Under the pieces are notes generated by a model that was not told where the DNA came from, ran no database searches, and was given only the letters and a program-made list of their open reading frames with translations. From positions 434,001-498,000 of the forward strand of contig JAJYUT010000003.1 of assembly GCA_021792365.1 (NCBI GenBank): a DNA stretch of 64,000 nt, read 5' to 3'. A program made the translations under genes and the position numbers. This stretch comes from Pseudomonadota bacterium. Its GTDB lineage: Bacteria; Pseudomonadota; Alphaproteobacteria; Dongiales; Dongiaceae. Shown here piece by piece: positions 40,053 to 63,363 of the stretch (position 1 is its first letter; the number at the start of each line of letters is the position of its first letter).

Positions 40053-40081
40053 TTGACATTCGTTTCATTTGAAACGATCTT
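40053..40081 (+). promoter_or_regulatory. Predicted hmgA promoter
   Basis: A perfect -35 TTGACA (40053-40058) is followed 17 nt later by a weak -10 (GATCTT, 40076-40081). The MarR operator palindrome fills the spacer. Confidence 0.45.
40061..40076. promoter_or_regulatory. Candidate MarR operator
   Basis: CGTTTCA-TT-TGAAACG is a perfect 16-bp inverted repeat between divergent marR and hmgA. It overlaps the spacer of the predicted hmgA promoter, so binding would block transcription. Confidence 0.75.
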
Positions 40082-40121
40082 AGACGATCGGACCTCGCCC
40101 GGCAAGCCGGAGGAGATCGTC

Positions 40122-41252: not shown

Positions 41253-41262
41253 AGTCGAACGC

Positions 41263-46749: not shown

Positions 46750-48330
46750 CTATGCCAGTGCCGGCGCGCGGGCCGGGAGACTCGGGGCCAGCGGCGCGCG
46801 GCCGCGCAGCAGGTCGCTGAACCGCTCGGCGATCGCGACGATCGCCGCGTTGACCGGCCCGGTGGTGATGGAGGGAATGATCGAGCCGTCGCACACGTAG
46901 AGGCGCTCGAGGCCGCGCAGCTTCAGGTTTGGATCGACCACCGCATCGGCATCACACCCCATTCGGCAGGTGCCCACCGGATGATGATGCGTGAAGGCCG
47001 CCATCTCCAGGAACGTGCGCTTGTCGGCCGCGCTCTTGACGGCCGGCCCCGGGAGATATTCCTCCGCCCGCCAATCCGACAAGGCCTGCGCCCCGCCCAC
47101 CGCTCGCGCCTGTTCGAGCGCTTCGAGATAGACGTCGCGATCATGCTCCTCGGCGAGGTAGTTGGGATCGATCAGCGGCGCGGCATCGGGATCGGCGCTG
47201 GCGAGCCGGATCGTTCCGCGGCTGCGCGGGTGGGTGAAGCCGAACATGATGGTATAGGCCTCCCCCAATGGCAGCGGCGCGAATCGCTCCGTCGTCACCG
47301 GCGCGGTGACGCAGGCCAGGACCAGCTCCGGCGCGCCCTCCTCGCCGTCGCGCGCGATATACATCAGCGATTCCGAGTTCTGGTATTTCGAGGAAGGCAC
47401 AGGGCGGCGCGCGCGATAGACATTCCCGCCGGAGAGCAGATGATCGTGCAGATTGCGCCCAACTCCGGGCAGATCGTGGCGCACGGGGATGCCGAGCGCG
47501 CGCAACTCCCCCGCCGCGCCGATCCCCGAGCGCATCAGTAGCACCGGCGAGGCTATCGTGCCAGCCGCCAGGACCACGCCGCGCTCGGCCATGAGATCGC
47601 GCGCGCCGTCGCGATCGCTCACGCGCACGCCCCGGCAGTGCGCGCCATCGAGGATCAGCGACAGCACCAGCGTCTCCGGCATCACGCGCAGGTTCGGCCG
47701 CGGCAGCGCCGGGACCAGATAGGCATCCGCGATGGTCTGGCGCTTGCCGTCCTTGATGGTGAGCGTGTTGAGGCAGGGCCCGGTCATCCGCGCGCCGTTG
47801 TGGTCCTCCGTCGGTGCGATGCCGGCCTCCGCACCGGCCGCCATATAGGCTTCGGTCACCGGGTGCGGCTCGGACGGGCGGATCAGGTGCAGCGGGCCGC
47901 CCGTGCCGTGATAGGACGAGGCGCCGGGTGTGTAATGCTCCGAACGCAGGAAATAGGGCATCAGGTCCGCATAGCCCCATCCGGCGCATCCGGCGGCGAC
48001 CCAGGCGTCGAAATCGGCCGGATGGCCGCGCACATGGGCCATCGCGTTGAGCGCCGTCGAGCCGCCGACCACCTTGCCGCGCGGCCACTCATGCACGCGG
48101 CCTCCCGTGTGACGCTGGGGGATGGTGCGATGGGCCCAGTCGATGGCGCTGCCCTGCAGCAGCGGCCATTGCGCCGGCTCCGCGATGCGCGGGTCGGCGG
48201 CCAGCCCGCCAGCCTCGATCAGCCCGATCCTGAGGTCCGTCTCCTCGCTCAGGCGCGCCGCCAGCACTGATCCGGCCGTGCCCGAACCAATCACCAGGAA
48301 ATCGAACCAATTGCTGGAATTTGATCTCAT
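46750..48330 (-). CDS. GMC-family FAD oxidoreductase, candidate vitamin B6 oxidase/dehydrogenase
   Basis: The 526-residue protein is a typical GMC flavoenzyme: FAD motif FLVIGSGTAGSVLAARLSE, signature PRGKVVGGSTALNAMAHVRG and active-site HHHPVGTCRMGCDAD with the C-terminal GPVNAAIVAIAERF. It oxidises an alcohol. Two enzymes of M. loti B6 degradation, pyridoxine 4-oxidase and 4-pyridoxate dehydrogenase, are GMC proteins, and this gene is divergent from ppaT, so one of those roles is likely. Choline or another alcohol cannot be excluded. The ATG at 48330 was preferred over a GTG at 48351. Confidence 0.88.
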   Translation of the reverse strand: MRSNSSNWFDFLVIGSGTAGSVLAARLSEETDLRIGLIEAGGLAADPRIAEPAQWPLLQGSAIDWAHRTIPQRHTGGRVHEWPRGKVVGGSTALNAMAHVRGHPADFDAWVAAGCAGWGYADLMPYFLRSEHYTPGASSYHGTGGPLHLIRPSEPHPVTEAYMAAGAEAGIAPTEDHNGARMTGPCLNTLTIKDGKRQTIADAYLVPALPRPNLRVMPETLVLSLILDGAHCRGVRVSDRDGARDLMAERGVVLAAGTIASPVLLMRSGIGAAGELRALGIPVRHDLPGVGRNLHDHLLSGGNVYRARRPVPSSKYQNSESLMYIARDGEEGAPELVLACVTAPVTTERFAPLPLGEAYTIMFGFTHPRSRGTIRLASADPDAAPLIDPNYLAEEHDRDVYLEALEQARAVGGAQALSDWRAEEYLPGPAVKSAADKRTFLEMAAFTHHHPVGTCRMGCDADAVVDPNLKLRGLERLYVCDGSIIPSITTGPVNAAIVAIAERFSDLLRGRAPLAPSLPARAPALA

Positions 48331-48444
48331 CCCCGCCGGAACCAATGCCACCCCGCAGTGGATATTGTTTCCACTTTCCAGGCCCCGAGTCTATGATCGG
48401 CGAACCAAAGCAAGAACAAGAAAACGCCAGTGGGGGCTCGCGTC

Positions 48445-49614
48445 ATGCCATCGCGGATCAAGGAACCGATCATTACCCTGTCGGCGGGACCAGTGGCCGC
48501 CTATCCCAGCGTTCTGCGCGCCATGTCGCGCCCCATCCAGTACGATTTCGACTCTTGGTTCCAGCAGTTCTATGAGGACGTGGCGCGGAAATCCGCGACC
48601 GCACTGCGGACCGCGGAACCGACCCTGATCCTGCAGGTCGAGCCGGCACCCGCAATCGAGGCCGCCGCCGCCTCGCTCATCTCGCCCGACGACGTGGTGC
48701 TGAACCTCGCCTCCGGCGTTTACGGCAAGGGCTTCGGCTACTGGTCGGCGCGCTACAATAAGGAGCTGGTGGAGATCGAGGTGCCCTATGACGAGGCGAT
48801 CGACCCGGCCCAGGTCGCGGAGGCCTTCCGCAAGCGGCCGGACATCAAGATCGTCTCGCTGGTCCATCACGACACGCCCTCGGGCACCATCAACCCCGCG
48901 CGCGAGATCGGAAAGATCGTGCGCGATCACGACGCGCTGCTGATCGTCGATGCGGTCTCCTCCTTCGGCGGCATGGACATTCATCCGGAGGATTGCTTCG
49001 CCGACATTTTCATCACCGGCCCTGGCAAATGCCTGGGCGGCGCGCCCGGCCTGACCCTGATGGCGGTCAGCGACCGCGCCTGGAAGCATATCGAGGCAAA
49101 CCCGAAGGCTCCCTTCGCCTCGGTGCTCAGCCTCAAGGATTGGAAGAACGCCTGGAGCAAGGACAAGCCCTTCCCCTTCACGCCCTCGGTCGCGGAGATC
49201 AACGGGCTCGACGGCGCCCTCGACCAGTATCTGAACGAAGGGCCGGAGCAGGTCTGGCGGCGCCATGCGCTGACCGCGCGCGCCTGCCGCGCCGGCATCA
49301 AGGCGATGGGCCTGGACCTGTGGGCGAAGACGGAGAGCATCGCCTCGCCCACCTGCACCGCCGTGCGCGTGCCCGCCGGCATGAACGACGATGAGATCAT
49401 CGCCGCCGCCCGCGCCGGTTTCGGCGTCGTGTTCTCGTCGGGCCGCAACGACACCAAGGGCAAGCTGATCCGCATCGGCCATATGGGGCCGGTGGCGGAG
49501 CCGATCTATGCGACGGTGGCGATCACCGCCCTCGGCGGCGCGCTGCGCAGGCTGGGGCGCAAGGTCGATGTGGCCGCGGGTGTCGAAGCGGCCATGAGCG
49601 TGATCGAAGGTTGA
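48445..49614 (+). CDS. ppaT: Pyridoxamine-pyruvate aminotransferase
   Basis: The 389-residue class V aminotransferase closely follows the M. loti pyridoxamine-pyruvate transaminase: ITLSAGPVAAYPSVLRAM, ASLISPDDVVLNLASGVYGK, HHDTPSGTINPAREIG and FSSGRNDTKGKLIRIGHMGP. The active-site lysine is K195 in TGPGKCLGG (Lys197 in M. loti numbering as I recall it). It converts pyridoxamine plus pyruvate to pyridoxal plus alanine and does not use bound PLP. The ATG at 48445 was chosen over a GTG at 48430 by spacing to the G-rich site. It heads an operon with pyridoxal dehydrogenase. Confidence 0.92.
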   Translation: MPSRIKEPIITLSAGPVAAYPSVLRAMSRPIQYDFDSWFQQFYEDVARKSATALRTAEPTLILQVEPAPAIEAAAASLISPDDVVLNLASGVYGKGFGYWSARYNKELVEIEVPYDEAIDPAQVAEAFRKRPDIKIVSLVHHDTPSGTINPAREIGKIVRDHDALLIVDAVSSFGGMDIHPEDCFADIFITGPGKCLGGAPGLTLMAVSDRAWKHIEANPKAPFASVLSLKDWKNAWSKDKPFPFTPSVAEINGLDGALDQYLNEGPEQVWRRHALTARACRAGIKAMGLDLWAKTESIASPTCTAVRVPAGMNDDEIIAAARAGFGVVFSSGRNDTKGKLIRIGHMGPVAEPIYATVAITALGGALRRLGRKVDVAAGVEAAMSVIEG

Positions 49615-49641: not shown

Positions 49642-50382
49642 ATGCGCAGGTTTGAAGGTCGCGTTGCCGTCGTATCGGGTGCGGCGCAGGGAATAGGCCG
49701 CGCCGTGGCGGAGCGCCTGGGCCAGGAAGGCGCCCTGGTGGTGGCGGTGGATATCAACGGCGCGGGCGCCGAGGCGACCGCAAAGGCAATCGGCGGCAAG
49801 AGCTTCGGCGTGGCCTGTGACATCGGCGACGAGGACCAGGTCGGCAGGTTGTTCGAGACGGTCGCGAAGCAATGCGGCAAGCTCGACGTGCTGGTGAACA
49901 ACGCCGCCATCGTCCCTTTCGTGAAGTGGGACGAGCTCTCGTTCAAGGAATGGCGGCGCGTGCTGCGCGTCAACCTAGACGGGCTCTACCTGATGTGCCG
50001 CGCCGGTTCCGACATGATGCGCAAGAACAACTACGGCCGCATCGTCAATTTCAGCTCCAACTCGATCTTCGCCGGCACGCCGAACATGGCGCATTACGTC
50101 GCCTCCAAGGGCGGCGTGCTCACCTTCACCCGCGCGCTCGCGACCGAGCTTGGCCCCTACAAGATCACCGTCAATTCGGTGTGCCCCGGCCTCACCGATA
50201 CCGAAGGCGTGCAGCAAACCCCGCACAAGGAAGCGTTCGGTTTCGTCGAGATGCTCCAGGCGATCAAGGGTGTCGGCAAGGCCGCGGACATCGTGCCGGC
50301 GGTCGCATTCCTTGCCTCCGAGGAGGCCCATTGGATCACCGGCCAGGCGCTCGCCATCGATGCCGGCATGGTGCGGTGGTAG
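49642..50382 (+). CDS. Pyridoxal 4-dehydrogenase (SDR family)
   Basis: The 246-residue short-chain dehydrogenase has SGAAQGIGRAV (cofactor site), NNAAIVPFVKWDEL, catalytic Y152 and K156 in MAHYVASKGG, and the specific tail EAFGFVEMLQAIKGVGKA to WITGQALAIDAGMVRW. These segments closely match the M. loti pyridoxal 4-dehydrogenase, which oxidises pyridoxal to 4-pyridoxolactone with NAD+. It begins 27 nt after ppaT and uses its product. A palindromic repeat follows the gene. Confidence 0.92.
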   Translation: MRRFEGRVAVVSGAAQGIGRAVAERLGQEGALVVAVDINGAGAEATAKAIGGKSFGVACDIGDEDQVGRLFETVAKQCGKLDVLVNNAAIVPFVKWDELSFKEWRRVLRVNLDGLYLMCRAGSDMMRKNNYGRIVNFSSNSIFAGTPNMAHYVASKGGVLTFTRALATELGPYKITVNSVCPGLTDTEGVQQTPHKEAFGFVEMLQAIKGVGKAADIVPAVAFLASEEAHWITGQALAIDAGMVRW

Positions 50383-50536: not shown

Positions 50537-51349
50537 TCACGAATAACAATTCGCGCCGGTCTGGTAGCTTTTGAAGCTGTCCGGATCGTGCGAGTAGAAC
50601 AGCTCGGCGTCGTATTTCGCCGCCAGCTCCTTCAGCCGGTGCAGCGACTTGACGCTCGCCACCGGATCCAGGTGGAAGCTGGAGATGCACATCATGTCCA
50701 TGTTCTTCTTGCTGTAGCAGGCATCGGCGGTGAACAGGATCGGCCGGCGGTTCTTCAGCTCCACCATCATGCTGTAATGGCCTGCGGTGTGGCCCGGCGT
50801 CTCGAACAGCCACAATCCCTTGGCGATCTCCTGGTCGCCGCTCAGCGTCTCGAATTTCGGCGTGTACATGTCGAGCGCGGGGTCGGGCGGCAGCTCCTTG
50901 CCGGCGTTCTTCTTCTTGTGAAGATCGGGCGCGAAGGTGAGATCGGAATAGCCGAGATGCTCGAACGGCTGGCAATCGCCGCTCGCCTCCAGCTCCTTGG
51001 CGTGGCAGATGGTGCAGGCCTTGTGCAGGTGCTTGTTCCCGCCGCAATGATCGAAGTGGTAGTGCGAGTTGATAACGTAGTCGATGTCGTCGGTCTTGAG
51101 GCCGATCTTGGCGAGCTGCCCGGGTATCGTCTGCTCCTTGTCCTGGATCGGCTTCTCGAAGGGCAGCACGCGCATCACGTGGTCGAAGTCGTAGCCGGTG
51201 TCGAACATGTAGCGGCCGTCCGCATGCTCCACCAGCACGGCATAGCAGGGGAAGCGCAGCTCCCCGCCTGGCCCGCGATTCCAGAAGGCGTGGAAGCCGT
51301 CGATCACCAGCGACCCGCCATCGAGCAGATAGACCTTGGTATCAGCCAT
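50537..51349 (-). CDS. 4-pyridoxolactonase (metallo-beta-lactamase fold)
   Basis: The 270-residue protein has the zinc motif H96-x-H98-x-D100-H101 (NSHYHFDHCGG) and follows the M. loti 4-pyridoxolactonase over its length: TKVYLLDGGSLVIDGFHAFW, RVLPFEKPIQDKEQTIPG, PFEHLGYSDLTFAPD, SHDPDSFKSYQTGANCY. It hydrolyses 4-pyridoxolactone to 4-pyridoxate, the step after pyridoxal dehydrogenase. It is the last gene of the leftward run containing the BMP-type transporter (55 nt after the permease), tying that transporter to vitamin B6. Confidence 0.93.
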   Translation of the reverse strand: MADTKVYLLDGGSLVIDGFHAFWNRGPGGELRFPCYAVLVEHADGRYMFDTGYDFDHVMRVLPFEKPIQDKEQTIPGQLAKIGLKTDDIDYVINSHYHFDHCGGNKHLHKACTICHAKELEASGDCQPFEHLGYSDLTFAPDLHKKKNAGKELPPDPALDMYTPKFETLSGDQEIAKGLWLFETPGHTAGHYSMMVELKNRRPILFTADACYSKKNMDMMCISSFHLDPVASVKSLHRLKELAAKYDAELFYSHDPDSFKSYQTGANCYS

Positions 51350-51404
51350 CGTCCCTCTCCCAGTTCCTGCCTTTAGCTCATCATTTCACTCTTCTCCGCG
51401 GGGC

Positions 51405-52340
51405 TCAACGCTCGCCGCGCACATAGGGCAGACCCAGGGCCGGCGGCAGCACGCTGTGCCGCGCGAAGATCACCAGCACCAGCATCACCATGGCGAAGGG
51501 CAGCATCTGCACCACGTCGGTCGGGATGTTGATCCCCGCCACCTGCAGCGCCGTGGTCATGGCGAGACTGATGCCGAACAGGGCCGCACCCAGCAGCACC
51601 CAGACCGGCCTCCCGCGCGCCAGCATGGCGAGCACGATGCCGATGAAGCCGGCGCCGCCCGTCATAAAGGGCACGAACAAGCCGGCGCCGATATTCGCCA
51701 TGTAGGCGCCGCCGATCCCGGACAGGAATCCCGTCGCCAGGACGGCGAAGGCGCGGGTCTTCACCACGCTGACGCCGGCCGCGTCGAGCGCCGCCGGCTT
51801 GTTCCCCGCCGCCTCCAGGTTGAGCCCGATATAGGTCGCGCGGAACAGCCAGCCGAGCGCGATCACCAGCAGGACCGCGAGATAGACGATCGGATTGTGG
51901 GTGAACAGCGCGCGCCCCAGGACGGGAATGTCGCTCAGCAGCGGCAGGGCCCAGGCCGGCGCCAGGTCGAGCCGCGGATAGGTCCGGCTGAACTGGAAAT
52001 AGTGCAGCAGCGCGGTCAGGCCTTCCATGCCGAGCGTCACGGCGATGCCGATGACGATCTGGTTGAGGCCATAGCGGATGCAGAGCAGGACAACCAGCGC
52101 CGCAACCAGCGCGCCGCCGATCCCGCCCGCCACGAAGCCGAGGGCGAAGGAGCCGCTGCAATAGGCCGCGACGAAGCCCGCATAGGCGCCGAACAGCATC
52201 ATGCCTTCGATGCCGATGTTGAGCACGCCGGCCTTTTCCGAGACCTGCTCGCCGAGGCCGGCCAGCAGCAGCGGCACGCCGGCCGTCACCGCGCCGAACA
52301 GCAGCGAGGTCAGGAAGGCTTCGGTCAGCAGCGAATCCAT
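51405..52340 (-). CDS. BMP-type ABC transporter permease 2
   Basis: The 311-residue protein has eight to nine hydrophobic helices and the conserved sequence of BMP-system permeases (SEKAGVLNIGIEGMMLFGAY, ATYIGLNLEAAGNKPAALDA). It pairs with the permease encoded 4 nt upstream. Such systems normally import nucleosides or other small cofactors. In this run, between the ATPase and pyridoxolactonase genes, vitamin B6 compounds are the likely cargo. Confidence 0.9.
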   Translation of the reverse strand: MDSLLTEAFLTSLLFGAVTAGVPLLLAGLGEQVSEKAGVLNIGIEGMMLFGAYAGFVAAYCSGSFALGFVAGGIGGALVAALVVLLCIRYGLNQIVIGIAVTLGMEGLTALLHYFQFSRTYPRLDLAPAWALPLLSDIPVLGRALFTHNPIVYLAVLLVIALGWLFRATYIGLNLEAAGNKPAALDAAGVSVVKTRAFAVLATGFLSGIGGAYMANIGAGLFVPFMTGGAGFIGIVLAMLARGRPVWVLLGAALFGISLAMTTALQVAGINIPTDVVQMLPFAMVMLVLVIFARHSVLPPALGLPYVRGER

Positions 52341-52344
52341 GCCC

Positions 52345-53430
52345 TCACGCTCCGATCCGCTTGCGGCGCTGGTGATCGAGATACTCGACCACCGCCAGGA
52401 AGATCAGCAGCAGCGCCACCAGCACCAGCACGAAATGCTGCGGCACGCCGATGCGCCGGGCGGCGCTGTCGCCGCCGATCATCAGCGCCGAGAAGAACAG
52501 GGTGAAGGCGATCGCCGCATACCCGTTGAAGCGCGCCAGGAAGACGAGTGGAACCACAAGAAGCCCGAAGGCCGGGTTCCAGTCCGCGCGCACCGTCCCG
52601 AACACGCCCAGGATCTCGACCGAGCCGCCGAGGCCGATCAGCGCCGCGCTGAGCGTGAAGGTCGCAATGGTGAGCCAAGGCACATTGAGCCCGGCATGAA
52701 CCGCCGCCGCCGGATTTGCGCCGACGACCTGCAGCTTCAGGCCGAAGGCGGTGCGCGTCATCATCAAATGTACCAGGATGACGACCGCGAGCGCGATCAG
52801 CACGCCGCTGTGGATCGTGGTGTCGAACAGGCGCGGCAGGCGCTCCTCCACCGGAAGGGTGCGGGTCTGCGGCACCGTGGTCGATGGGTCCCAGAAGAAC
52901 AGCTTCACCAGCACATTGGCGAAGCTGATGCCGAGGAAGCTCATCATCAGCGAGGTGATGATCTCGTTGATGCCGTAGCGCGCCTTCAGCACCGCCGGGA
53001 TGACCGCCCACAACGCCGCTACCGCCGCGGACACGATCATGCAGGCGACCAGGATCGCGACCTTGGGCAGCGTGCCCACCAGGGCCGGCGCGAGCGCGGC
53101 CGTGATGACGGCGGCCAGCAGGAACTGCCCGTCGCCGCCCAGGTTCCAGATGCCCGCGCGGAAGGCGACGATCAGCCCCGCCGCGATCAGCAGCAGCGGC
53201 GACATGCGCGTGAGGGTTTCCTGCAGCCCGCCCCAGGTCAGCAGCCCGCGCCGCGCGACATAGCCGTAATAGGCGAGCGGGTCCTTGCCCAGGACCAGCA
53301 GGATGATGCCGCCGACCGCCAGGGCCAGCAGGATCGGCACCGCCACGCGCAGGACGGAGGCCATCGCGTCCCGCGCACCAGCGCTCCCCGGCGCGCCCCG
53401 CCGCGCCACCTGCTGCGCTTCGGCGGTCAT
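52345..53430 (-). CDS. BMP-type ABC transporter permease 1
   Basis: The 361-residue membrane protein has about ten helices, with the family blocks FRAGIWNLGGDGQFLLAAVI and LMMSFLGISFANVLVKLFFW and the EAA-like FGLKLQVVGANPAAAVHAGL. It forms the membrane channel together with permease 2. A 187-bp gap holding a palindromic repeat separates it from the ATPase gene. Confidence 0.9.
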   Translation of the reverse strand: MTAEAQQVARRGAPGSAGARDAMASVLRVAVPILLALAVGGIILLVLGKDPLAYYGYVARRGLLTWGGLQETLTRMSPLLLIAAGLIVAFRAGIWNLGGDGQFLLAAVITAALAPALVGTLPKVAILVACMIVSAAVAALWAVIPAVLKARYGINEIITSLMMSFLGISFANVLVKLFFWDPSTTVPQTRTLPVEERLPRLFDTTIHSGVLIALAVVILVHLMMTRTAFGLKLQVVGANPAAAVHAGLNVPWLTIATFTLSAALIGLGGSVEILGVFGTVRADWNPAFGLLVVPLVFLARFNGYAAIAFTLFFSALMIGGDSAARRIGVPQHFVLVLVALLLIFLAVVEYLDHQRRKRIGA

Positions 53431-53460
53431 GCGCAGAACCTACCTTCCGCTCCGCCCCTA

Positions 53461-53597
53461 CTGTCATGCCGGCCCAGCCACGAAGTGGCGCAGAGCCGGG
53501 ACCCATGCGCACCATGAGCGTGCGCCGCCGTGAAGGGCATTGCACTGCCTTGCGAGGCATGGGTCCCGGGTCGCGCTGCGCGCGCCCGGGATGACAG
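53461..53597. repeat. Palindromic intergenic repeat, copy B
   Basis: The 137-bp unit begins CTGTCATGCCGGCCC and ends GCGCCCGGGATGACAG, with ACCCATG and its inverse CATGGGT inside. It splits the transporter operon between ATPase and permease genes. The minus-strand transcript could fold here, which may lower permease expression or stabilise the upstream mRNA. Confidence 0.8.
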
Positions 53598-53617
53598 TCG
53601 GAGAAGAAAGCGCATCT

Positions 53618-55210
<1,593 letters not shown>

Positions 55211-56260
55211 TTACTGCGCAGGAGCGTCGGTGACCGAGGTCATCAACGCCCGCACCTTGTCGGCTTCCCAGATCGGCTCGATCTTCATCTCGCCCTTGAC
55301 GATCTGCTCACGCACCGCCGACACCTCGCCCCAGACGCCGTCCGGGATATGCGTGGTCTTGAGGAGCTGCACCGAATCGTCGGCGAGCTGGATCGAATAA
55401 CCCTTCGTGCCGAAGGTATCGGCCTTCAGGTCCTCGACCATCGCCGAATAGACCGGCACCAGGTTCCACACCACCGAGGAGAGCAGGTGGCCCTTGTCGA
55501 TGGCGGTCTTGTCGCCGATCACGTCGATGAACCACACCTTGCCGCCCGCGGTCGACTTGCCGGTCTCGACAGCCTGCAGCATGCCGAATGTTGCACCGTC
55601 GCCCTGGCCGAAGATCACATCCGCGCCGGCGCCGATCACCGAGGCGGTCACGCGGTTGCCGCCCGCCGCGTCGGAATAGGCGGCAGGGCCGATCACGGCA
55701 TAAAGCACCTTGATGCTCCCATCCGCCGCCTTCACGCCCTGGGCGAACGCCGCCGATTGCGAGTTCCAGGACGGCGGCTCACCCGAGACAACGATCGCGA
55801 CCGACTTGGTCTGGGTCGTCTTGGCCGCCAGGACGCCGGCGAGATAGGCGCCCTCATGGCCGCTCAGCGTGTAATCCGCGATCGCGCCCGCCTTGTTGGC
55901 ATCCGGCCGGTCGACGATCGCGACGGGCACGCCCTTCTCCGCGCCGACTTCCGGCGCCGCGGTGTTGTAGCCGCTGGCATGGGCGATGATGAGGCTGGCG
56001 CCGTCATCGGCCACTTCGCGCAACTGCGGATGCACATCGCCATAGCCGAGCCCCGTCGCCGGGATGAACTCGATACCGAACTTTTCCGCCACCGCCTTGG
56101 CCGCGTCATGCCCCTGCTGGTTCCAGCCGTAATCCGTCGGGTCCTCCGGCGTCAGGATAGCGATGCTCTTCACATCCGCCGCCTGCGCGAGAGTGGTGGT
56201 GCCCATGGCAAGCGCAAGCAGCGACACCTGCGCCAGCCTCTTGAGAGTCCTCGTGTTCAT
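55211..56260 (-). CDS. BMP-family substrate-binding protein
   Basis: The 349-residue protein has a Sec signal (MNTRTLKRLAQVSLLALAMG, cleavage after AQA near residue 28). The mature part is a basic-membrane-protein (PnrA/Med-like) binding protein: TPEDPTDYGWNQQGHDAAKA, SGHEGAYLAGVLAA, GADVIFGQGDGATFGMLQA. It should bind the transported molecule. The start at 56260 has an AGGAAGGAAAC site. It opens the transporter operon, with an operator-like site 25-46 nt upstream. Given the neighbours, a B6 vitamer is the best guess. Confidence 0.9.
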   Translation of the reverse strand: MNTRTLKRLAQVSLLALAMGTTTLAQAADVKSIAILTPEDPTDYGWNQQGHDAAKAVAEKFGIEFIPATGLGYGDVHPQLREVADDGASLIIAHASGYNTAAPEVGAEKGVPVAIVDRPDANKAGAIADYTLSGHEGAYLAGVLAAKTTQTKSVAIVVSGEPPSWNSQSAAFAQGVKAADGSIKVLYAVIGPAAYSDAAGGNRVTASVIGAGADVIFGQGDGATFGMLQAVETGKSTAGGKVWFIDVIGDKTAIDKGHLLSSVVWNLVPVYSAMVEDLKADTFGTKGYSIQLADDSVQLLKTTHIPDGVWGEVSAVREQIVKGEMKIEPIWEADKVRALMTSVTDAPAQ

Positions 56261-56284
56261 CTTCGTTTCCTTCCTGTTCCTGTC

Positions 56285-56306
56285 CCCATTATGTACGCCA
56301 TTGGTC
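56285..56306. promoter_or_regulatory. Weak copy of the cupin-operon operator motif
   Basis: The right half CCATTGGTC is identical over nine bases to the site at 61170-61190, and TAT in the left half is also kept, but the left half is poorer. It sits 25-46 nt before the BMP gene, about the same place as the site before the cupin gene. Confidence 0.4.
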
Positions 56307-56354
56307 AACGCTTGTACGCCACGCGTGGTGAGGTTCCGGGTCGAACCTGTCTGA

Positions 56355-57269
56355 TCAGCTTTCCAGCGCCTTGCGGACGGCGACCAGGCGCCTGGCCCGG
56401 AGCGCGCGCAGCTCGGCGATTCTTTCCGGCGTGTAGCTGAAGATGCCCTCGCCGGTCTTCATGCCCAGCTTGCCCGCCTTGGTCCGCTCGGTGACATAGG
56501 GGCTGAGATCGCCCCGGTTGCACAGATCCTTGTTCAGATATGAGCCGACCGCCTGATAGATGTCGAGGCCGGCCATGTCGAGCAGCGCCATCGGGCCGAT
56601 GACCGACAGCTTGTAGCCGATGCCCCAGGAGACGCAGGTATCCAGTCCTTCGGCATCGATCACGCCCTGATCGAACAGGTCGACGCACTCCCGCAGCAGC
56701 GCATAGAGCACGCGGTTCTCGACGAAGCCCGGCACGTCCTTCTGCACCACCACCGGCAGGAGGCCGAGATCCTTGATGGTCGAGACCATCCACTGCACGG
56801 TCTCCTTGGAGGTCTTGTTTCCGGCAATCACCTCGATCATCGGGATGATGTGCGGCGGGTTGGACCAGTGCATGCCCACCACGCGCTCCGGCGCCGACAC
56901 GTTCTCCTGCAGCTTCGTGATCGGAATACCGGAGGTGTTGCTGGCGATGATGCAGTTCTTGGAGACCAGCGCGTCGATTTCCTTGAACACCGCGGCCTTG
57001 ATGTCGAGCTTCTCCGGCACCGTTTCCACCACCACGGTCGCGCCGTCGAGGCACTCCTTCAGGCTGCCCGTGACCTTGACCGCCGCCTTGGTGCGATCCG
57101 GGACACCGAGCGCGCCCAGCACCTTGTTGGCAAGCTCGATCCCCTCCGGCGCCTTCTTGCGCTGGTCCTCGCTCACGTCGAACGCGGTCACGTCCATGCC
57201 GGCGCGCGCCAGGGTTTGCGCGATGCCCGGCCCCATGGTTCCCAGACCCACCACTGCTGCTTTAGCCAT
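56355..57269 (-). CDS. FHMPC dehydrogenase (3-hydroxyacyl-CoA dehydrogenase family)
   Basis: The 304-residue protein has a Rossmann motif VVGLGTMGPGIA and family blocks SGIPITKLQ, GMHWSNPPHIIPMIEVIAG, KDVPGFVENRVLYALLRE, CVSWGIGYKLSVIGPMALLD and GEGIFSYTPERI. These match closely the M. loti 5-formyl-3-hydroxy-2-methylpyridine-4-carboxylate 5-dehydrogenase. It would oxidise FHMPC to 3-hydroxy-2-methylpyridine-4,5-dicarboxylate (HMPDC) with NAD+. A plain 3-hydroxybutyryl-CoA dehydrogenase is the alternative but fits the blocks and context less well. Confidence 0.88.
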   Translation of the reverse strand: MAKAAVVGLGTMGPGIAQTLARAGMDVTAFDVSEDQRKKAPEGIELANKVLGALGVPDRTKAAVKVTGSLKECLDGATVVVETVPEKLDIKAAVFKEIDALVSKNCIIASNTSGIPITKLQENVSAPERVVGMHWSNPPHIIPMIEVIAGNKTSKETVQWMVSTIKDLGLLPVVVQKDVPGFVENRVLYALLRECVDLFDQGVIDAEGLDTCVSWGIGYKLSVIGPMALLDMAGLDIYQAVGSYLNKDLCNRGDLSPYVTERTKAGKLGMKTGEGIFSYTPERIAELRALRARRLVAVRKALES

Positions 57270-57322
57270 TCTGTGCCTCCTCTATGTTCGTTCTCTATTC
57301 ATGCGGCCCGCCTTCTCTCCAT

Positions 57323-57436
57323 CTGTCACCCCCGGCAAGCCGCGTCAGCGGCATGACCTGGCACCCATGCGCTCCATCAGCGCCATGGAGGCGCCGCATG
57401 GGTCCCGGCTCTCGCTACGCTCGGCCGGGATGACAG
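57323..57436. repeat. Palindromic intergenic repeat, copy C
   Basis: The 114-bp unit begins CTGTCACCCCCGGC and ends GCCGGGATGACAG, with ACCCATGCG and CGCATGGGT inside. It lies between the FHMPC dehydrogenase and GST genes, which are on the same strand. Confidence 0.8.
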
Positions 57437-57465
57437 ATGATAAGGAAGTGCGCCGTGCACGCACT

Positions 57466-58071
57466 CTACGCTCCCGTCGCTTTCTTGAAGGCCGGCCGTT
57501 CCGCCAGTTTCGCCCGCCAGGCCTTCAGGTTCGACAGCGCCGGCAGCGCGATCGGAAAATCGAGGCACCGATGCAGCACCGGGCCGAGCGCGATATCGGC
57601 GATGGTGAAATCACCGCCCGCGATCCACGGCTTGCCGGCCAGTGCACCGTCCAGGGTCGAGAGCTGCGCCGCCAGTTCCTTTGCGTCGGCCTCGAAGCTC
57701 GCCGCGCGCTCGTTCGCCGGCTTCTTCGAATCCTTGAAGACCTGCACGTAGTGGTAGTTGACCGAGGCCAGCAGCCAGTCCATCCAGCGCTCGATTTCGG
57801 TGCGCGGTGCGGGATCCACGGGATAGAGAGCGGCCTTGCCCAGCTTGTTGCAGAGATAGCGCAGGATGGTGTTGGACTCCCACACCACCACCTCGCCATC
57901 CACCAGGGTCGGCACCTTGCCGTTCGGATTGAGCTTCAGATAGGCAGCGTCCTGCGTGTTGTTGAACTGGCGCCCGTAATCCTCGCGCTGATAGGCGACG
58001 CCCAGTTCCTCCAGCAGGAATATGACCTTCTGGACATTGCCGGATGTGCTCCGACCGAGAAGCCGCAACAT
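57466..58071 (-). CDS. Glutathione S-transferase family protein
   Basis: The 201-residue protein has an N-terminal thioredoxin-like domain (MLRLLGRSTSGNVQKVIFLL, LNPNGKVPTLVDGEVVVWES with the cis-Pro and the ES glutathione site) and a helical C-terminal domain with GKPWIAGGDFTIADIALGPV. The Ser in TSGN is in the usual catalytic position. In the run with a ring-cleaving cupin it could isomerise a cis-configured ring-cleavage product, as maleylpyruvate isomerases do. The second ATG at 58071 was taken as start because GGAGGA precedes it. Confidence 0.87.
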   Translation of the reverse strand: MLRLLGRSTSGNVQKVIFLLEELGVAYQREDYGRQFNNTQDAAYLKLNPNGKVPTLVDGEVVVWESNTILRYLCNKLGKAALYPVDPAPRTEIERWMDWLLASVNYHYVQVFKDSKKPANERAASFEADAKELAAQLSTLDGALAGKPWIAGGDFTIADIALGPVLHRCLDFPIALPALSNLKAWRAKLAERPAFKKATGA

Positions 58072-58153
58072 GCTCCCATCTCCTCCCATTGTCGCTCTGC
58101 CGGCGCGCTCCGCGCCCGCTTGTTCGTTCGAGGCGCGCGCCGCGCCCGTTCGC

Positions 58154-58546
58154 TCACCCGCGGCGCGGCTTGTACGCGACCGCGTCCATTTCGATCTTGC
58201 ACTCGATAACGGCGCGCGCCTCCACCGTGGTGCGGCTGACCCGCCCGTCCGGGAAGTATTCGGCGAACACCCTGTTGTAGCGCCCGAAGTTGCGCGCGTC
58301 CTCCAGATAGACGGTTACCTTCACGACATCGCTGAGGTCGGCGCCTTCCAGCGCCAGGATGCGCTTGATGCCCTCGAGGGTCCAGCGCGTCTCCTCCTCG
58401 ATATTGCCGACGCACATGTTGCCGTTCTCGTCCTTGGCGACTTGTCCCGAGACAAAGATGAAGTCGCCGGCGCGCACGGCCGGGTGGAATGGCAAGGTCG
58501 GGCTCTTTCTGCCGATCGGATGGATGTCCTTGTTGTCGCCGCTCAT
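58154..58546 (-). CDS. RidA-family protein
   Basis: The 130-residue protein matches RidA/YjgF: PFHPAVRAGDFIFVSGQVAK, GIKRILALEGADLSDVVKVT and the Arg-containing RVSRTTVEARAVIECKIEMD end. RidA proteins hydrolyse reactive enamines and imines to ketones. Its place between a GST and an LVIVD protein, behind a ring-cleaving cupin, would suit hydrolysis of a nitrogenous ring-opening product. The start is the ATG at 58546; the frame is open far upstream only as a shadow. Confidence 0.9.
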   Translation of the reverse strand: MSGDNKDIHPIGRKSPTLPFHPAVRAGDFIFVSGQVAKDENGNMCVGNIEEETRWTLEGIKRILALEGADLSDVVKVTVYLEDARNFGRYNRVFAEYFPDGRVSRTTVEARAVIECKIEMDAVAYKPRRG

Positions 58547-58566
58547 GGCGCCCCCCAATTGTTTCG

Positions 58567-59694
58567 CTACAAGACCGAGGTCTCGATGATGTCGACGCCG
58601 CGCTGGCGGTCGATCAGGTAGCACAGCCCGCGATCGTCGATCGTCACGTCGTTCGACGAGGAAAGCTCGAAGCCTTGCGGCGGATCGGGCTCGTAGAACG
58701 CGACCTCCCGCGGATTGAACGGATCGGCGATGTCGAGAATCCGGAGCCCCTGGGCGAACCACGCGAAGGGGATGGTGGTGCCCTTGAATCGCTCGGACGG
58801 CTGATGGCAGCCCATCATCGGCGGCTGAGGCGAGCCATCCTTGTCCAATCCCTCGACCTGCCAGGTCGCGATCGGCACCGGGCATCCCTCGTTGGTGATG
58901 TCGTAGATCCAGGTGAAGGCCGGCGCCGCCGGCCACAGCTTCGCGACATCCTCGTCCGCCACGATCATGATGTCGCGGCCCTTCAAGGGCTGCGGCATGG
59001 GCAGGCAGGTATGGGTCGGATGCGGGAAGGCCGGCGAGGTGTTGCCGCCGGAGACCAGCTTCGGCTTCGACATGTCGGAGATGTCGAGGATGTAGTAGCC
59101 GTGGTGCCAGTAGCTGACATAGAGCCGGTCGCCGCGGCGCATCGGATGATGGCAGCGCGGCGGTGTCCAATTGGCCCAGGGGTATTCCTCCCCGCCCGCC
59201 TGCCACTGGCCCGGGATCCACCAGCGCCCGACCTCTTCCGGCTTTGCCGGATCCTTGAGGTCGAGGATCATGCAGATATTGCCGACAAAGCCCTCGGCGG
59301 TCGGCGAGATATAGGCGTAGCGCCCGTCGAAATCGTAGCGGTGAACGCCTTTGCCGTGGGTGCGCCACTTGGTGATGAGCTTCGGATCGCTTGGCTTCGA
59401 GACGTCATAGATGCCGAGGCCGCCGCCGAACCCGTTGTCCCCGTCCGGACCCTGCTTCTCATGGTTCACGACCATGATGCCGTTGGCGACGCGCACCTTG
59501 TGCGAGTGCCAGCCCTGCGGCACCTCGATACGCGAGACGAGGCGGGGGTTCCGGGGGTCGGAAACATCGACGATGCTGGTGCCGGTCGGCTGGCGCATGT
59601 GGCCGACATAGAGGGTGGTGCCTTCGACCCAGACCTGGCCTCCGCCGGGGCAGTCGAAATTCGCGAGCAGCTTGGTGTTCTTGGATCGGGCCAT
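58567..59694 (-). CDS. LVIVD-repeat beta-propeller protein
   Basis: The 375-residue protein is built from repeats of the LVIVD type, for example GTSIVDVSDPRNPRLVSRIE, GLGIYDVSKPSDPKLITKW, GYYILDISDMSKPKLVSGG and GLRILDIADPFNPREVAFYE. It has many His residues (HSHK, CHHPMRRGD, HHGYY, HPTHTC) that could hold a metal, as in selenium-binding-protein-like propellers. No signal peptide is visible. The function is unknown; it lies tightly between the cupin dioxygenase and RidA genes (38- and 20-nt gaps). Confidence 0.85.
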   Translation of the reverse strand: MARSKNTKLLANFDCPGGGQVWVEGTTLYVGHMRQPTGTSIVDVSDPRNPRLVSRIEVPQGWHSHKVRVANGIMVVNHEKQGPDGDNGFGGGLGIYDVSKPSDPKLITKWRTHGKGVHRYDFDGRYAYISPTAEGFVGNICMILDLKDPAKPEEVGRWWIPGQWQAGGEEYPWANWTPPRCHHPMRRGDRLYVSYWHHGYYILDISDMSKPKLVSGGNTSPAFPHPTHTCLPMPQPLKGRDIMIVADEDVAKLWPAAPAFTWIYDITNEGCPVPIATWQVEGLDKDGSPQPPMMGCHQPSERFKGTTIPFAWFAQGLRILDIADPFNPREVAFYEPDPPQGFELSSSNDVTIDDRGLCYLIDRQRGVDIIETSVL

Positions 59695-59732
59695 GATGAT
59701 TGTGCGCGGGTAAAGGGGATTCCTGCGGGGCT

Positions 59733-60881
59733 TCAGTACAGTCGCACGACTTCCCCGCTCGCCATGCGCCCGTGCTTCTGGTAGAGCGCCAGCGCCTTCA
59801 GCGTCGGCTCGTCGCTGGCGACGAACAGGATCGCCGGCGCGCGGTCGGAGGTGTTGACATGCTCCGCCCATTCGCCGCCCGGGGCCGCGAAGGTGTCGAA
59901 GCGCTCCCAGTCCAGCCGCTTGCCGCCGACCATGCTGTAGCCCTGCCCCTCGAACGGCGCCACCAGCAGGCTGGCGGTCTGCTTCAAGGGCTGCGTGCGC
60001 TCCCCCGGCCGCAACATCTGCATGAAGAAGGTGATGGTCTTGAACACCGGCTTGCCGTCGAGCGGATTCACGTACTCGATCATGATGGCTTCGTGGGGGT
60101 CGCCGTCCCAGTCGCGGAACTTCTCCAGCGCCTCGCGCATCATGTCCCAGCGGTAGACGTACATCGGCGAGGCATTGCCTGTACCGCGCATGTGCGAGAC
60201 GAAGCGCGGCATCAATCCGCCCTGGCCGTAGACGCGCTGCGAGTAGTCCGAGGGGAAGCGCTCCGACTGCATGATGCGGCGCACCCGCTTGCCCTCTTCC
60301 TCCTCGGTGTAGTCGTGCTCGAAATACATGGCGTTCAGCGTCTCGACCAGAGGCAGGTCGAGGACGGAGAGGTTGATCGCCGGCTCGTCCCCCTGGTTGC
60401 CGTGGTTGTGCCAGGTGTCGTGCGGCGTCAGCACCATGTCGCCGGGGCCGAAGGTGATGTTCTCGCCCTCGACGCCGGTGAAGTTGAGAGCGCCGGTGAG
60501 GCCGAGGCGGATCGCGTTCGGCGAATGCCGGTGCGGCGGCATGATCTCGTTGGGGTCGTTCAGCCGATAGGCCGTGTACATGGTCGAGACCGAGGCGCGC
60601 TTGGGTGCGAGGCCCGGATTGACCAGGATCAGCGACCGGCGCTCCGAGGATTCCGCGTTGATGAGCTCGGCCGAGCGATGGAGCAGCGGCTCGATGTCGC
60701 TCTTGTACTTCCAGATGAAGGGAACCGCCTTGCGCGTGTCGCGCAGCTGGTTGTCCTCGTCGTTCTTCCTGGTCTTGTCGATCGCCCAGAAGGGCGCCAT
60801 GTGATGGCGGTAGACGTCGGCATGCAGCTCATCCATCGCCGCCTGCAGATTGTGGCCTTCGAGCTTGGCGCTTGCGCTCAT
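59733..60881 (-). CDS. Gentisate/salicylate 1,2-dioxygenase-type cupin
   Basis: The 382-residue bicupin belongs to the gentisate 1,2-dioxygenase family, which also includes salicylate and 1-hydroxy-2-naphthoate dioxygenases. Iron ligands are H117 and H119 (PPHRHSPNAIRLGLTG) and H158 (LTPHDTWHNHGNQGD). ASPMYVYRWDMMREALEKF matches the family substrate region. These enzymes split the bond between a carbon bearing OH and one bearing COOH. The start at 60881 has a GAGGGAGG site. It heads the ten-gene leftward run with the vitamin B6 genes, behind a 21-bp operator. Confidence 0.9.
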   Translation of the reverse strand: MSASAKLEGHNLQAAMDELHADVYRHHMAPFWAIDKTRKNDEDNQLRDTRKAVPFIWKYKSDIEPLLHRSAELINAESSERRSLILVNPGLAPKRASVSTMYTAYRLNDPNEIMPPHRHSPNAIRLGLTGALNFTGVEGENITFGPGDMVLTPHDTWHNHGNQGDEPAINLSVLDLPLVETLNAMYFEHDYTEEEEGKRVRRIMQSERFPSDYSQRVYGQGGLMPRFVSHMRGTGNASPMYVYRWDMMREALEKFRDWDGDPHEAIMIEYVNPLDGKPVFKTITFFMQMLRPGERTQPLKQTASLLVAPFEGQGYSMVGGKRLDWERFDTFAAPGGEWAEHVNTSDRAPAILFVASDEPTLKALALYQKHGRMASGEVVRLY

Positions 60882-61323: not shown

Positions 61324-62076
61324 ATGTTGCAGCACGCAGACCACACCTTGAGCAAGCTTCGGCAGATGATCGCCAATGGCAGCCTGGGCGCCGGAGGGCG
61401 CATCCCGCCGGAGCGCACCCTGGCGAACGAGATGGGCGTCGGCCGCCGCTCGCTGCGGCGCGCGCTGGAGATCCTGGAGCAGGAGGGGCAGATCACCCGC
61501 CATCAGGGCCGCGGCACCTTCGTGCAGAGCAGGCCGGCGGCTGCGCCCATTGCGCTCCGCGCGCGCGACGACATCGCCGTCGCTGCGGCCATATCCGCCA
61601 TTCCGTTCGACCGCATTCTGGAGTTCACCAACCCGCTGGAAGTGATCGAGGTGCGCCTGGCGGTGGAACCGGTGATCGCGCGCCTGGCCGCCCTGCGCGC
61701 CTCGCAAGCCGATATCCGCCGCCTGCAGGGCCTGGTGGAGGAGACGCGGCGGGCGACCGACCCGGCCGTCTATGAAAAAGCCGATGAGCGCTTCCATCGC
61801 GCGGTGGCCGAGGCGGCGCGCAACGCCCTGTTCCTGTCGCTGTTCGATGCCTTGAGCGCGAGCCGGCGCGACGCCACCTGGCGGCGCCTTAGCGAGAATG
61901 CCCATTGCTTCAAGCGGCAGTCGGTGCATTCCGCCTCGCACCAGGAGATCTACGAGGCGATCGCCGCACGCAACAGCGAGCGCGCCTATGAGTGCATGTA
62001 CAAGCATTTGAGGGACGTGCAGAACCACGTCCATGCCTACGCCTTTCCGGCGGAGCAGAAGAGCGTGGCGGAGTGA
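61324..62076 (+). CDS. FCD-subfamily GntR regulator
   Basis: The 250-residue protein has a GntR winged helix (residues 5-70: IPPERTLANEMGVGRRSLRR, ITRHQGRGTFVQ) and an FCD ligand-binding domain with metal-site residues in EVRLAVEPVIARLAA, DERFHRAVAEAA and HQEIYEAIAARN. FCD regulators respond to organic acids. It is divergent from the cupin/B6 run, with two copies of a shared operator motif in the gap, so it most likely controls that run. The ligand might be a pyridine carboxylate or a ring-opening product. Confidence 0.9.
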   Translation: MLQHADHTLSKLRQMIANGSLGAGGRIPPERTLANEMGVGRRSLRRALEILEQEGQITRHQGRGTFVQSRPAAAPIALRARDDIAVAAAISAIPFDRILEFTNPLEVIEVRLAVEPVIARLAALRASQADIRRLQGLVEETRRATDPAVYEKADERFHRAVAEAARNALFLSLFDALSASRRDATWRRLSENAHCFKRQSVHSASHQEIYEAIAARNSERAYECMYKHLRDVQNHVHAYAFPAEQKSVAE

Positions 62077-62734: not shown

Positions 62735-62743
62735 GCCGCGGCG

Positions 62744-63283: not shown

Positions 63284-63363
63284 CCGCAGCCTCCGTCGCG
63301 CGAATCGCCGTTCCGTGCCGGACGCTATGGCACGGAGACGGCGATCAGTCCATCGAGGCGATG

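What the first reader, a model, noticed from the sequence alone, without database searches (positions are those of the whole stretch)
50537..60881. Possible alternative vitamin B6 degradation route using a salicylate-dioxygenase-type cupin
Seen: a ten-gene leftward run joins close matches of M. loti 4-pyridoxolactonase and FHMPC dehydrogenase with a gentisate/salicylate dioxygenase-type cupin, an LVIVD protein, RidA and GST. The known next enzymes (HMPDC decarboxylase, flavin ring-opening oxygenase, acetamidomethylenesuccinate hydrolase) are not in the window. Known: this cupin family cleaves between an OH-bearing and a COOH-bearing ring carbon. FHMPC dehydrogenase makes HMPDC, which has OH on C3 and COOH on C4, the same ortho pattern as salicylate. 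Inferred: the cupin may cleave HMPDC (or 4-pyridoxate) directly, replacing decarboxylase and flavoenzyme, with RidA and GST processing the nitrogenous product.
Basis: partly seen in the sequence, partly recalled or inferred. Interest (0 to 1): 0.88.

Follow-up and report, generated by a model that had tools for sequence, protein, structure and literature searches.

The report
Swapped vitamin B6 ring-opening gene cassette
Some bacteria appear to break the ring of vitamin B6 with a different, iron-dependent enzyme set that sits in the same gene cluster in place of the textbook set, pointing to a further, still untested way of degrading this vitamin.

Summary
The window, from a Dongia-like bacterium, carries the upper vitamin B6 pathway: a GMC oxidase plus transaminase, pyridoxal dehydrogenase, 4-pyridoxolactonase and FHMPC dehydrogenase, the last four over NCBIfam cut-offs (FHMPC dehydrogenase by 1.4 bits). 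A cupin-LVIVD-RidA-GST cassette joins it. Orthologs of HMPDC decarboxylase, MHPC oxygenase and the last hydrolase were not found in the genome. Of 80 FHMPC-dehydrogenase loci, 54 carry the cupin, 24 MHPC oxygenase, none both. In Mesorhizobium the two sets occupy one place in one locus, with a junction inside the FHMPC-dehydrogenase gene in the pair examined. Cupin and FHMPC dehydrogenase occur in the same 14 of 17 genomes of the order and the same 6 of 385 of a class sample. The cupin keeps iron ligands and carboxylate-binding Arg/His of salicylate dioxygenase, but 54 of 54 sequences replace Gln108/Trp172/Asp174 with Arg/Asn/Ser.

Best reading: the cupin opens HMPDC between C3-OH and C4-COOH, bypassing decarboxylase and flavoenzyme. 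The LVIVD protein (54 of 54 cupin loci), a predicted metal propeller hydrolase, is the likelier second enzyme; RidA and GST look accessory. All chemistry is inferred; my open-access searches found no report of this route.

The parts
46750..48351 (-). GMC oxidoreductase, candidate pyridoxine 4-oxidase (upper pathway)
   Evidence: Pfam GMC_oxred_N/C; a GMC gene of 63-82% identity lies beside the transaminase in 8 of 13 fetched relatives' loci; 46% (L083) and 50% (L060) identical to the gene at the pyridoxine-oxidase place of Mesorhizobium loci (that gene's label is recalled). Substrate not tested.
48430..49614 (+). pyridoxamine-pyruvate transaminase
   Evidence: NF046070 655.7 bits, cut-off 600
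49642..50382 (+). SDR-type pyridoxal 4-dehydrogenase
   Evidence: NF047923 414.8 bits, cut-off 325
50537..51349 (-). 4-pyridoxolactonase
   Evidence: NF047925 477.4 bits, cut-off 325
51405..56308 (-). ABC importer: two permeases (51405-52340, 52345-53430), ATPase (53618-55210), BMP-type binding protein (55211-56308); presumed uptake of a B6 vitamer or metabolite
   Evidence: ORFs; syntenic in relatives; family names from reading the translations, not from a family search
56355..57269 (-). FHMPC dehydrogenase (would make HMPDC)
   Evidence: NF042925 501.4 bits, cut-off 500; PDB 4om8 E 1.4e-116
57466..58089 (-). glutathione S-transferase family protein, accessory
   Evidence: Pfam GST_N/GST_C; maiA only 49.9 of 171 bits; in 47 of 54 cupin loci
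58154..58546 (-). RidA-family protein, probable enamine/imine deaminase, accessory
   Evidence: Pfam Ribonuc_L-PSP; kin include 2-aminomuconate deaminase 6izh and 2-iminopropanoate deaminases; in 45 of 54 cupin loci
58567..59694 (-). LVIVD-repeat beta-propeller protein, predicted metal hydrolase, constant partner of the cupin
   Evidence: Pfam LVIVD; best solved relative by sequence and fold: phosphotriesterase of Sphingobium TCM1, 5hrm; His/Glu/Asp set invariant in 9 of 9 homologues aligned; in 54 of 54 cupin loci
59733..60881 (-). bicupin ring-cleavage dioxygenase of the gentisate/salicylate type, proposed HMPDC dioxygenase
   Evidence: PDB 2d40, 3bu7, 2phd E 4e-58 to 1e-38 with a family profile; active-site table
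61324..62076 (+). GntR/FCD regulator, divergent from the cupin operon
   Evidence: Pfam GntR + FCD; divergent neighbour of the cupin in 10 of 13 fetched relatives' loci

Best explanation
The cluster is a vitamin B6 catabolic locus whose lower half is a replacement cassette. Shown by sequence: the upper genes and FHMPC dehydrogenase, the absence of orthologs of the classical lower genes, and the exchange of cassettes between relatives. Inferred: FHMPC dehydrogenase makes HMPDC (3-hydroxy-2-methylpyridine-4,5-dicarboxylate); the cupin binds it to Fe(II) through the C3 oxygen and the C4 carboxylate and inserts O2 between C3 and C4, giving HOOC-C(CH3)=N-CH=C(COOH)-CO-COOH (C8H7NO7). The LVIVD propeller, a predicted metal hydrolase, then splits the chain at the C6-N side, giving a formyl-oxaloacetate and 2-iminopropanoate/2-aminoacrylate; RidA hydrolyses the latter to pyruvate and ammonia; the GST isomerises or scavenges the reactive keto-enedioate. 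The last three assignments are the least certain.
For: Mutual exclusion: of 80 FHMPC-dehydrogenase loci, 54 have the cupin, 24 MHPC oxygenase, 0 both, 2 neither (L057 cut at a contig end, L109 a different set). Reference identities: MHPC oxygenase 3alj, last hydrolase 3kxp, HMPDC decarboxylase 2z7b. Cassette exchange: between M. loti DSM 2626 (L060, cupin) and M. jarvisii (L083, classical) transporter, lactonase and transaminase are 95-98% identical, but FHMPC dehydrogenase 84%, the second GMC gene 81% and pyridoxine oxidase 55%; DNA identity jumps from 63-66% to 88-95% about 345 bp into the FHMPC-dehydrogenase gene. Co-occurrence, own genome included: cupin and FHMPC_DH in the same 14 of 17 genomes of the order; in the 385-genome class sample FHMPC_DH, cupin at >=67% and LVIVD at >=74% identity in the same 6. 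No MHPC oxygenase ortholog in 14 chosen cupin-type genomes (5 of 14 had only 27-31% matches). Active site, 54 of 54 sequences: iron ligands H117/H119/H158 (SDO H119/H121/H160) and R81/R125/H160 (SDO R83/R127/H162) kept; Q108, W172, D174 replaced by R106, N170, S172. PMC11264262 (passages) names those three among residues conserved in all GDOs; PMC10306065 (passages) ties D174 and W104 to gentisate's 5-OH. In HMPDC that ring position bears H, and an extra carboxylate lies beside the first, where R106 could face. LVIVD: 5hrm is best by sequence and fold.
Against: No assay, product or growth test exists in what I could see. FHMPC_DH is only 1.4 bits over its cut-off here; of the 14 order genomes with a match 10 are over it. 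The 80 loci were found through FHMPC dehydrogenase and are the best 80 of 244 by likeness to the window, so proportions are not prevalence. The own genome and 6 of 13 cassette-bearing relatives lack a close ortholog of the candidate 4-pyridoxate dehydrogenase, so how HMPDC's precursor is made there is open. RidA and GST are missing near the cupin in 9 and 7 of 54 loci. Two of four other cupins compared also lack Gln108, so that change alone is not special. The cupin model is only moderate (pLDDT 71) and no coordinates were available to place residues; the LVIVD metal site is inferred from conservation alone.
Confidence: 0.72

Rival explanations
1. The cupin cleaves 4-pyridoxate or FHMPC (also 3-OH/4-COOH) directly, and FHMPC dehydrogenase oxidises the C5 side group after ring opening.
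For: 4-Pyridoxate has the same ortho OH/COOH pattern; the window's genome lacks a close ortholog of the candidate 4-pyridoxate dehydrogenase, so HMPDC supply is not fully explained.
Against: 33 of 54 cupin loci keep that candidate gene within the fetched flank, and FHMPC dehydrogenase stays 60% identical to the M. loti enzyme; the genes swapped out are those after HMPDC. Gln108 to Arg106 in 54 of 54 suits a second carboxylate.
Confidence: 0.12
2. The cupin serves an unrelated gentisate/salicylate-type aromatic pathway that happens to lie beside B6 genes.
For: Closest solved relatives are gentisate and salicylate dioxygenases.
Against: In the samples searched it occurs only with FHMPC dehydrogenase: same 14 of 17 and same 6 of 385 genomes; residues conserved in gentisate/salicylate enzymes are replaced in 54 of 54; equivalog scores are less than half of the cut-offs.
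Confidence: 0.05
3. A non-orthologous decarboxylase and flavin oxygenase elsewhere in the genome complete the classical route; the cassette only removes toxic intermediates.
For: Distant flavoprotein, class II aldolase and alpha/beta-hydrolase paralogs exist in some of these genomes.
Against: The cassette takes the place of the classical genes inside the same locus; in the own genome two of the three enzymes have no match at the thresholds used and the third only paralogs of 22-34% identity.
Confidence: 0.08
4. The LVIVD propeller, not the cupin, opens the ring (a metal-centred propeller oxygenase), and the cupin acts afterwards.
For: LVIVD is present in 54 of 54 cupin loci and has a large invariant His/Glu/Asp set.
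Against: Its nearest solved fold is a hydrolase, whereas the cupin has the iron and carboxylate machinery of ring-cleaving dioxygenases.
Confidence: 0.03

Closest known systems
Vitamin B6 degradation pathway I of Mesorhizobium loti MAFF303099 / Pseudomonas MA-1
   Same: Same upper genes and FHMPC dehydrogenase; same locus and neighbours in Mesorhizobium
   Different: HMPDC decarboxylase, MHPC oxygenase and acetamidomethylenesuccinate hydrolase are replaced by cupin-LVIVD-RidA-GST; predicted products pyruvate, ammonia and formyl-oxaloacetate instead of succinic semialdehyde, ammonia, acetate and CO2 (those in PMC3538738, passage)
Vitamin B6 degradation pathway II (Pseudomonas IA, Arthrobacter Cr-7)
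   Same: Also degrades B6, ending in 2-(hydroxymethyl)-4-oxobutanoate (PMC3538738, passage)
   Different: Runs through isopyridoxal and 5-pyridoxate (recalled); its genes were not available for a test, but 4-pyridoxolactonase and FHMPC dehydrogenase belong to pathway I
Salicylate 1,2-dioxygenase of Pseudaminobacter salicylatoxidans and gentisate 1,2-dioxygenases
   Same: Bicupin fold, three His iron ligands, Arg83/Arg127/His162, Ala125, Leu176 equivalents
   Different: Gln108, Trp172, Asp174 replaced by Arg, Asn, Ser in 54 of 54, Leu38 by Phe (47) or Tyr (7); 25-31% identity in the structural matches; predicted pyridine substrate
5-Aminosalicylate 1,2-dioxygenase MabB and 5-nitrosalicylate 1,2-dioxygenase
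   Same: Ortho hydroxy-carboxylate ring cleavage without a second ring OH
   Different: MabB model 210 of 650 bits; 5NSDO is a monocupin with other pocket residues (PMC10306065, passages)
RidA-family 2-aminomuconate deaminase (6izh) and 2-iminopropanoate deaminases
   Same: RidA family; the former acts on a ring-cleavage product with an enamine nitrogen (recalled)
   Different: Best subfamily model below its cut-off (79.4 of 106.25 bits); substrate here unknown
Sphingobium TCM1 phosphotriesterase (haloalkylphosphorus hydrolase, 5hrm)
   Same: Best solved match of the LVIVD protein by sequence (E 4e-11) and fold (E 3e-17, 19% identity)
   Different: Very low identity; conserved His/Glu set not shown to match its metal ligands; no phosphotriester role expected

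Membership tests
Classical B6 pathway I (M. loti type) | 4-pyridoxolactonase, pyridoxal dehydrogenase, transaminase, FHMPC dehydrogenase | tested here: met
   NCBIfam equivalogs over cut-off
Classical B6 pathway I (M. loti type) | 4-pyridoxate dehydrogenase (GMC) present | tested here: inconclusive
   Best match in own genome 47% identical, against 65-68% orthologs in 7 of 17 genomes; the reference gene's label rests on its place in the M. jarvisii locus and recall
Classical B6 pathway I (M. loti type) | HMPDC decarboxylase, MHPC oxygenase, acetamidomethylenesuccinate hydrolase | tested here: not met
   no match in own genome at the thresholds; 12 paralogs, 22-34% identity
Gentisate/salicylate 1,2-dioxygenase family | Bicupin with three His iron ligands | tested here: met
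   (54 of 54)
Gentisate/salicylate 1,2-dioxygenase family | Arg83, Arg127, His162 (SDO numbering) | tested here: met
   (54 of 54)
Gentisate/salicylate 1,2-dioxygenase family | Leu38, Gln108, Trp172, Asp174, given as conserved in all GDOs (PMC11264262, passages) | tested here: not met
   Phe/Tyr, Arg, Asn, Ser in 54 of 54
Gentisate 1,2-dioxygenase equivalog | Score over TIGR02272 cut-off | tested here: not met
   210.6 of 442.1 bits
Gentisate/salicylate 1,2-dioxygenase family | Fe(II)- and O2-dependent cleavage between C-OH and C-COOH | not testable with these tools
   Needs purified enzyme
RidA (2-iminopropanoate deaminase) family | Family sequence | tested here: met
   Pfam Ribonuc_L-PSP
Maleylacetoacetate isomerase (zeta GST) | Score over maiA cut-off | tested here: not met
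   49.9 of 171.05 bits
Sb-PTE-like metal propeller hydrolase | Metal-ligand residues equivalent to those of 5hrm | tested here: inconclusive
   Fold match and conserved His/Glu/Asp, but ligands could not be superposed

The most novel reading that the evidence does not exclude
A separate bacterial route of vitamin B6 catabolism: a gentisate-type cupin opens a pyridine ring directly at HMPDC, and a metal beta-propeller hydrolase of the functionally uncharted LVIVD family cuts the aza-diene, releasing 2-iminopropanoate for a dedicated RidA. The module is exchangeable by recombination with the classical one, and in the window's lineage FHMPC dehydrogenase may also do the alcohol oxidation of the missing 4-pyridoxate dehydrogenase.
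Probability: 0.5. Interest if true: 0.85.

Novelty: new variant of a known kind. Interest (0 to 1): 0.76.

Why it matters
In the route described for M. loti and Pseudomonas MA-1 (passages of PMC3538738 and PMC6253932) HMPDC is first decarboxylated and the ring is then opened by a flavin oxygenase (flavin and order of steps recalled). A cupin acting on HMPDC would be a second chemical solution for the same intermediate, would give a function to an LVIVD-type propeller and a physiological role to an operon-bound RidA, and would correct annotation: Mesorhizobium strains, including one named M. loti, carry either version at the same place. The swap makes the claim directly testable by cross-complementation.

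Tried and rejected
VIA-align library (not on the machine). Paper PMC2140245 (not held). A cupin family tree with gentisate dioxygenases had very long branches, so I draw nothing from its deep branching. The FHMPC-dehydrogenase tree is of a gene with a recombination junction, so its branching inside Mesorhizobium is to be taken with care. Contexts of six distant LVIVD homologues held no match to the cupin, so they give no hint of function. Considered and rejected: unrelated gentisate/salicylate pathway; maleylacetoacetate-isomerase identity of the GST; the isopyridoxal/5-pyridoxate route (not tested by its own genes). A claim of prevalence was rejected because of the ascertainment. 'No report found' rests only on open-access search listings: (30 of 76 papers listed), and 80 (all six terms required; no paper); one search was for LVIVD. 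Most subscription papers on B6 catabolism are not held. Papers PMC11264262, PMC10306065, PMC11656708, PMC3538738, PMC6253932 and PMC11841055 were seen as passages only.
Full report
What is there. The window lies at G000:C28:434001-498000 of a 5.43-Mb genome whose nearest named relative by FHMPC dehydrogenase is Dongia deserti (95% identical). The ten leftward genes of the finding are real and intact. To their left lie a divergent transaminase and pyridoxal dehydrogenase and a GMC oxidoreductase. Four genes pass NCBIfam equivalog cut-offs for B6 catabolism: transaminase, pyridoxal 4-dehydrogenase, 4-pyridoxolactonase and FHMPC dehydrogenase (the last only 501.4 against 500). So the upper route to HMPDC is well supported except for one step, 4-pyridoxate to FHMPC, discussed below.

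The classical lower genes are missing. Reference proteins were taken from M. jarvisii (L083): MHPC oxygenase (3alj, E 6e-258), the last hydrolase (3kxp, E 5e-173) and HMPDC decarboxylase (2z7b, Mlr6791, E 2e-157; 2Z7B is named HMPDC decarboxylase in PMC11841055, passage). In the own genome the oxygenase has no match at E<=1e-15, the decarboxylase none at E<=1e-10, and the hydrolase only 12 paralogs of 22-34% identity. In the order, 2 of 17 genomes have oxygenase-like matches of 27-29% identity and 5 of 17 weak decarboxylase-like ones of 29-33%.

Conserved cassette. In 13 of 13 relatives' loci the order cupin-LVIVD-RidA-GST-FHMPC dehydrogenase is kept, mostly followed by the transporter and lactonase (one short contig, L022, cuts the cupin). 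FHMPC_DH matches 14 of 17 genomes of the order at E<=1e-60, 10 of them over the family cut-off; the cupin occurs in exactly those 14. In a 385-genome class sample FHMPC_DH is found in 6 (4 over the cut-off); the cupin at 67% identity or more in the same 6, with 8 other matches of 44% or less; LVIVD at 74% or more in the same 6, others 57% or less. The own genome is counted in these figures. The cupin and LVIVD searches did not use FHMPC dehydrogenase as bait.

Mutual exclusion and exchange. A scan of named genomes with an FHMPC-dehydrogenase alignment gave 80 loci, the best 80 of 244. 54 carry the cupin, 24 MHPC oxygenase, none both; L057 (contig end) and L109 have neither. LVIVD is in 54 of 54 cupin loci, GST in 47, RidA in 45. 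In the 24 classical loci decarboxylase is in 24 and the last hydrolase in 23 (L084 lacks it). The two types interleave on the Mesorhizobium-Martelella side of the FHMPC-dehydrogenase tree, with at least 3 changes of type. Within Mesorhizobium, M. loti DSM 2626 (L060, cupin type) and M. jarvisii (L083, classical) share transporter, lactonase and transaminase at 95-98% protein identity, but FHMPC dehydrogenase at 84%, the second GMC at 81% and the pyridoxine oxidase at 55%. DNA identity rises from 63-66% to 88-95% about 345 bp into the FHMPC-dehydrogenase gene: a recombination junction. In the other two cross-type pairs compared (L103/L106, L060/L063) the shared block likewise starts at this gene. 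In 14 cupin-type genomes that I chose, no MHPC oxygenase ortholog was found: 9 no match, 5 matches of 27-31% identity (completeness of these not given). Of five cupin-type genomes with no lactonase in the fetched locus (G302, and those of L050, L052, L039, L045), four have one over the cut-off elsewhere; L045's genome does not. The other four genomes of that call, which carry it in the locus, also match.

The cupin. By profile its best solved relatives are gentisate dioxygenases 2d40 and 3bu7 and salicylate dioxygenase 2phd/3nst; the model (pLDDT 71) matches the same folds. The window protein and 53 near-complete homologues (the contig-cut one, L033, left out) all keep His117/119/158, Arg81, Arg125 and His160, the equivalents of SDO His119/121/160, Arg83, Arg127 and His162. 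PMC11264262 (passages) lists the Fe ligands and reports that altering Arg83 or Arg127 abolished activity. It also lists Leu38, Gln108, Ala125, Arg127, His162, Trp172, Asp174 and Leu176 as conserved among all GDOs. Here Ala125, Arg127, His162 and Leu176 are kept, Leu38 is Phe (47) or Tyr (7), and Gln108, Trp172 and Asp174 are Arg106, Asn170 and Ser172 in 54 of 54. Four of the eight other cupin matches of the class sample were compared: they keep Trp172 and Asp174 in 4 of 4 and Gln108 in 2 of 4. PMC10306065 (passages) gives Gln108 as a carboxylate contact and Asp174/Trp104 as contacts of gentisate's 5-OH; position 104 is Tyr in 54 of 54, as in the E. coli enzyme 2d40, so it does not discriminate. 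Placing HMPDC like salicylate puts its C5 carboxylate next to the reacting one and hydrogen where gentisate has 5-OH. That fits an extra arginine and a lost aspartate; this placement is my inference.

LVIVD, RidA, GST. The LVIVD model (pLDDT 84) matches Sphingobium TCM1 phosphotriesterase best (E 3e-17; best other protein 1e-8), as does the sequence profile. The title of its structure paper, seen in a reference list, speaks of a binuclear metal centre in a seven-bladed propeller. His63, 65, 118, 182, 183, 228, 297 and Glu79, 169, 248 are invariant in 9 of 9 aligned homologues including six distant ones, so a metal hydrolase is likely, but the ligands were not superposed. RidA kin include 2-aminomuconate deaminase and 2-iminopropanoate deaminases. 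The predicted ring-fission product is an N-substituted 2-iminopropanoate; hydrolysis at its C6-N side would release the canonical RidA substrate (recalled), which also hydrolyses by itself (recalled), so its gene could be dispensable. The GST is not a maleylacetoacetate isomerase by score.

Open step. A GMC protein 65-68% identical to the gene next to FHMPC dehydrogenase in M. jarvisii, taken as 4-pyridoxate dehydrogenase by position and recall, is present in 7 of the 14 cassette-bearing genomes of the order. It is not found in the other 7, the own genome among them (best 47%); one of these, G011, is only 68% complete. The six relatives lacking it have FHMPC dehydrogenases 74-95% identical to the window's; the seven with it 61-71%. 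Either another GMC protein or the dehydrogenase itself may do this oxidation.

Verdict. A well-supported genomic replacement of the lower B6 pathway and a specific, testable enzyme prediction; no chemistry shown. New variant of a known kind. My searches found no report of a cupin in B6 catabolism, but subscription literature was not searched.

Noticed in passing
L109 2292-14506 (Candidatus Dormiibacterota MAG): A possible third version: lactonase, FHMPC dehydrogenase, transaminase and pyridoxal dehydrogenase beside a three-part molybdenum hydroxylase, a class II aldolase (27% to HMPDC decarboxylase), an M29-family protein (recalled fold of 2,5-dihydroxypyridine dioxygenase), a small cupin and a luciferase-like monooxygenase; neither MHPC oxygenase nor the gentisate-type cupin.
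   Followed up: partly
window 56355-57269; L031-L035, L041: The window's genome and six cassette-bearing relatives lack a close ortholog of the candidate 4-pyridoxate dehydrogenase; their FHMPC dehydrogenases are more like the window's than those of genomes that have it, hinting at a bifunctional enzyme.
   Followed up: partly
L060/L083 about 10344: Recombination junction inside the FHMPC-dehydrogenase gene between a cupin-type and a classical Mesorhizobium locus.
   Followed up: yes
L083 6336-6965: A 209-aa protein without an NCBIfam match at E 1e-20, present in 24 of 24 classical loci; homologues also in three cupin-type loci (L036, L037, L105), 45% identical in L105 and 43% in L176, apparently the same contig as L037.
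   Followed up: no
window 62138-63996: Genes that read like an intradiol dioxygenase, an isochorismatase and a pirin next to the regulator (not family-searched); matches near the cassette only in the two closest relatives (G009: L021/L031; G010: L024/L032).
   Followed up: no
window 40053-42279: Genes that read like homogentisate dioxygenase and fumarylacetoacetase family proteins (translations; not family-searched).
   Followed up: no
L026 304-2603 (also seen in L041): Two tandem transaminase copies, 71% and 60% identical to the window's.
   Followed up: no
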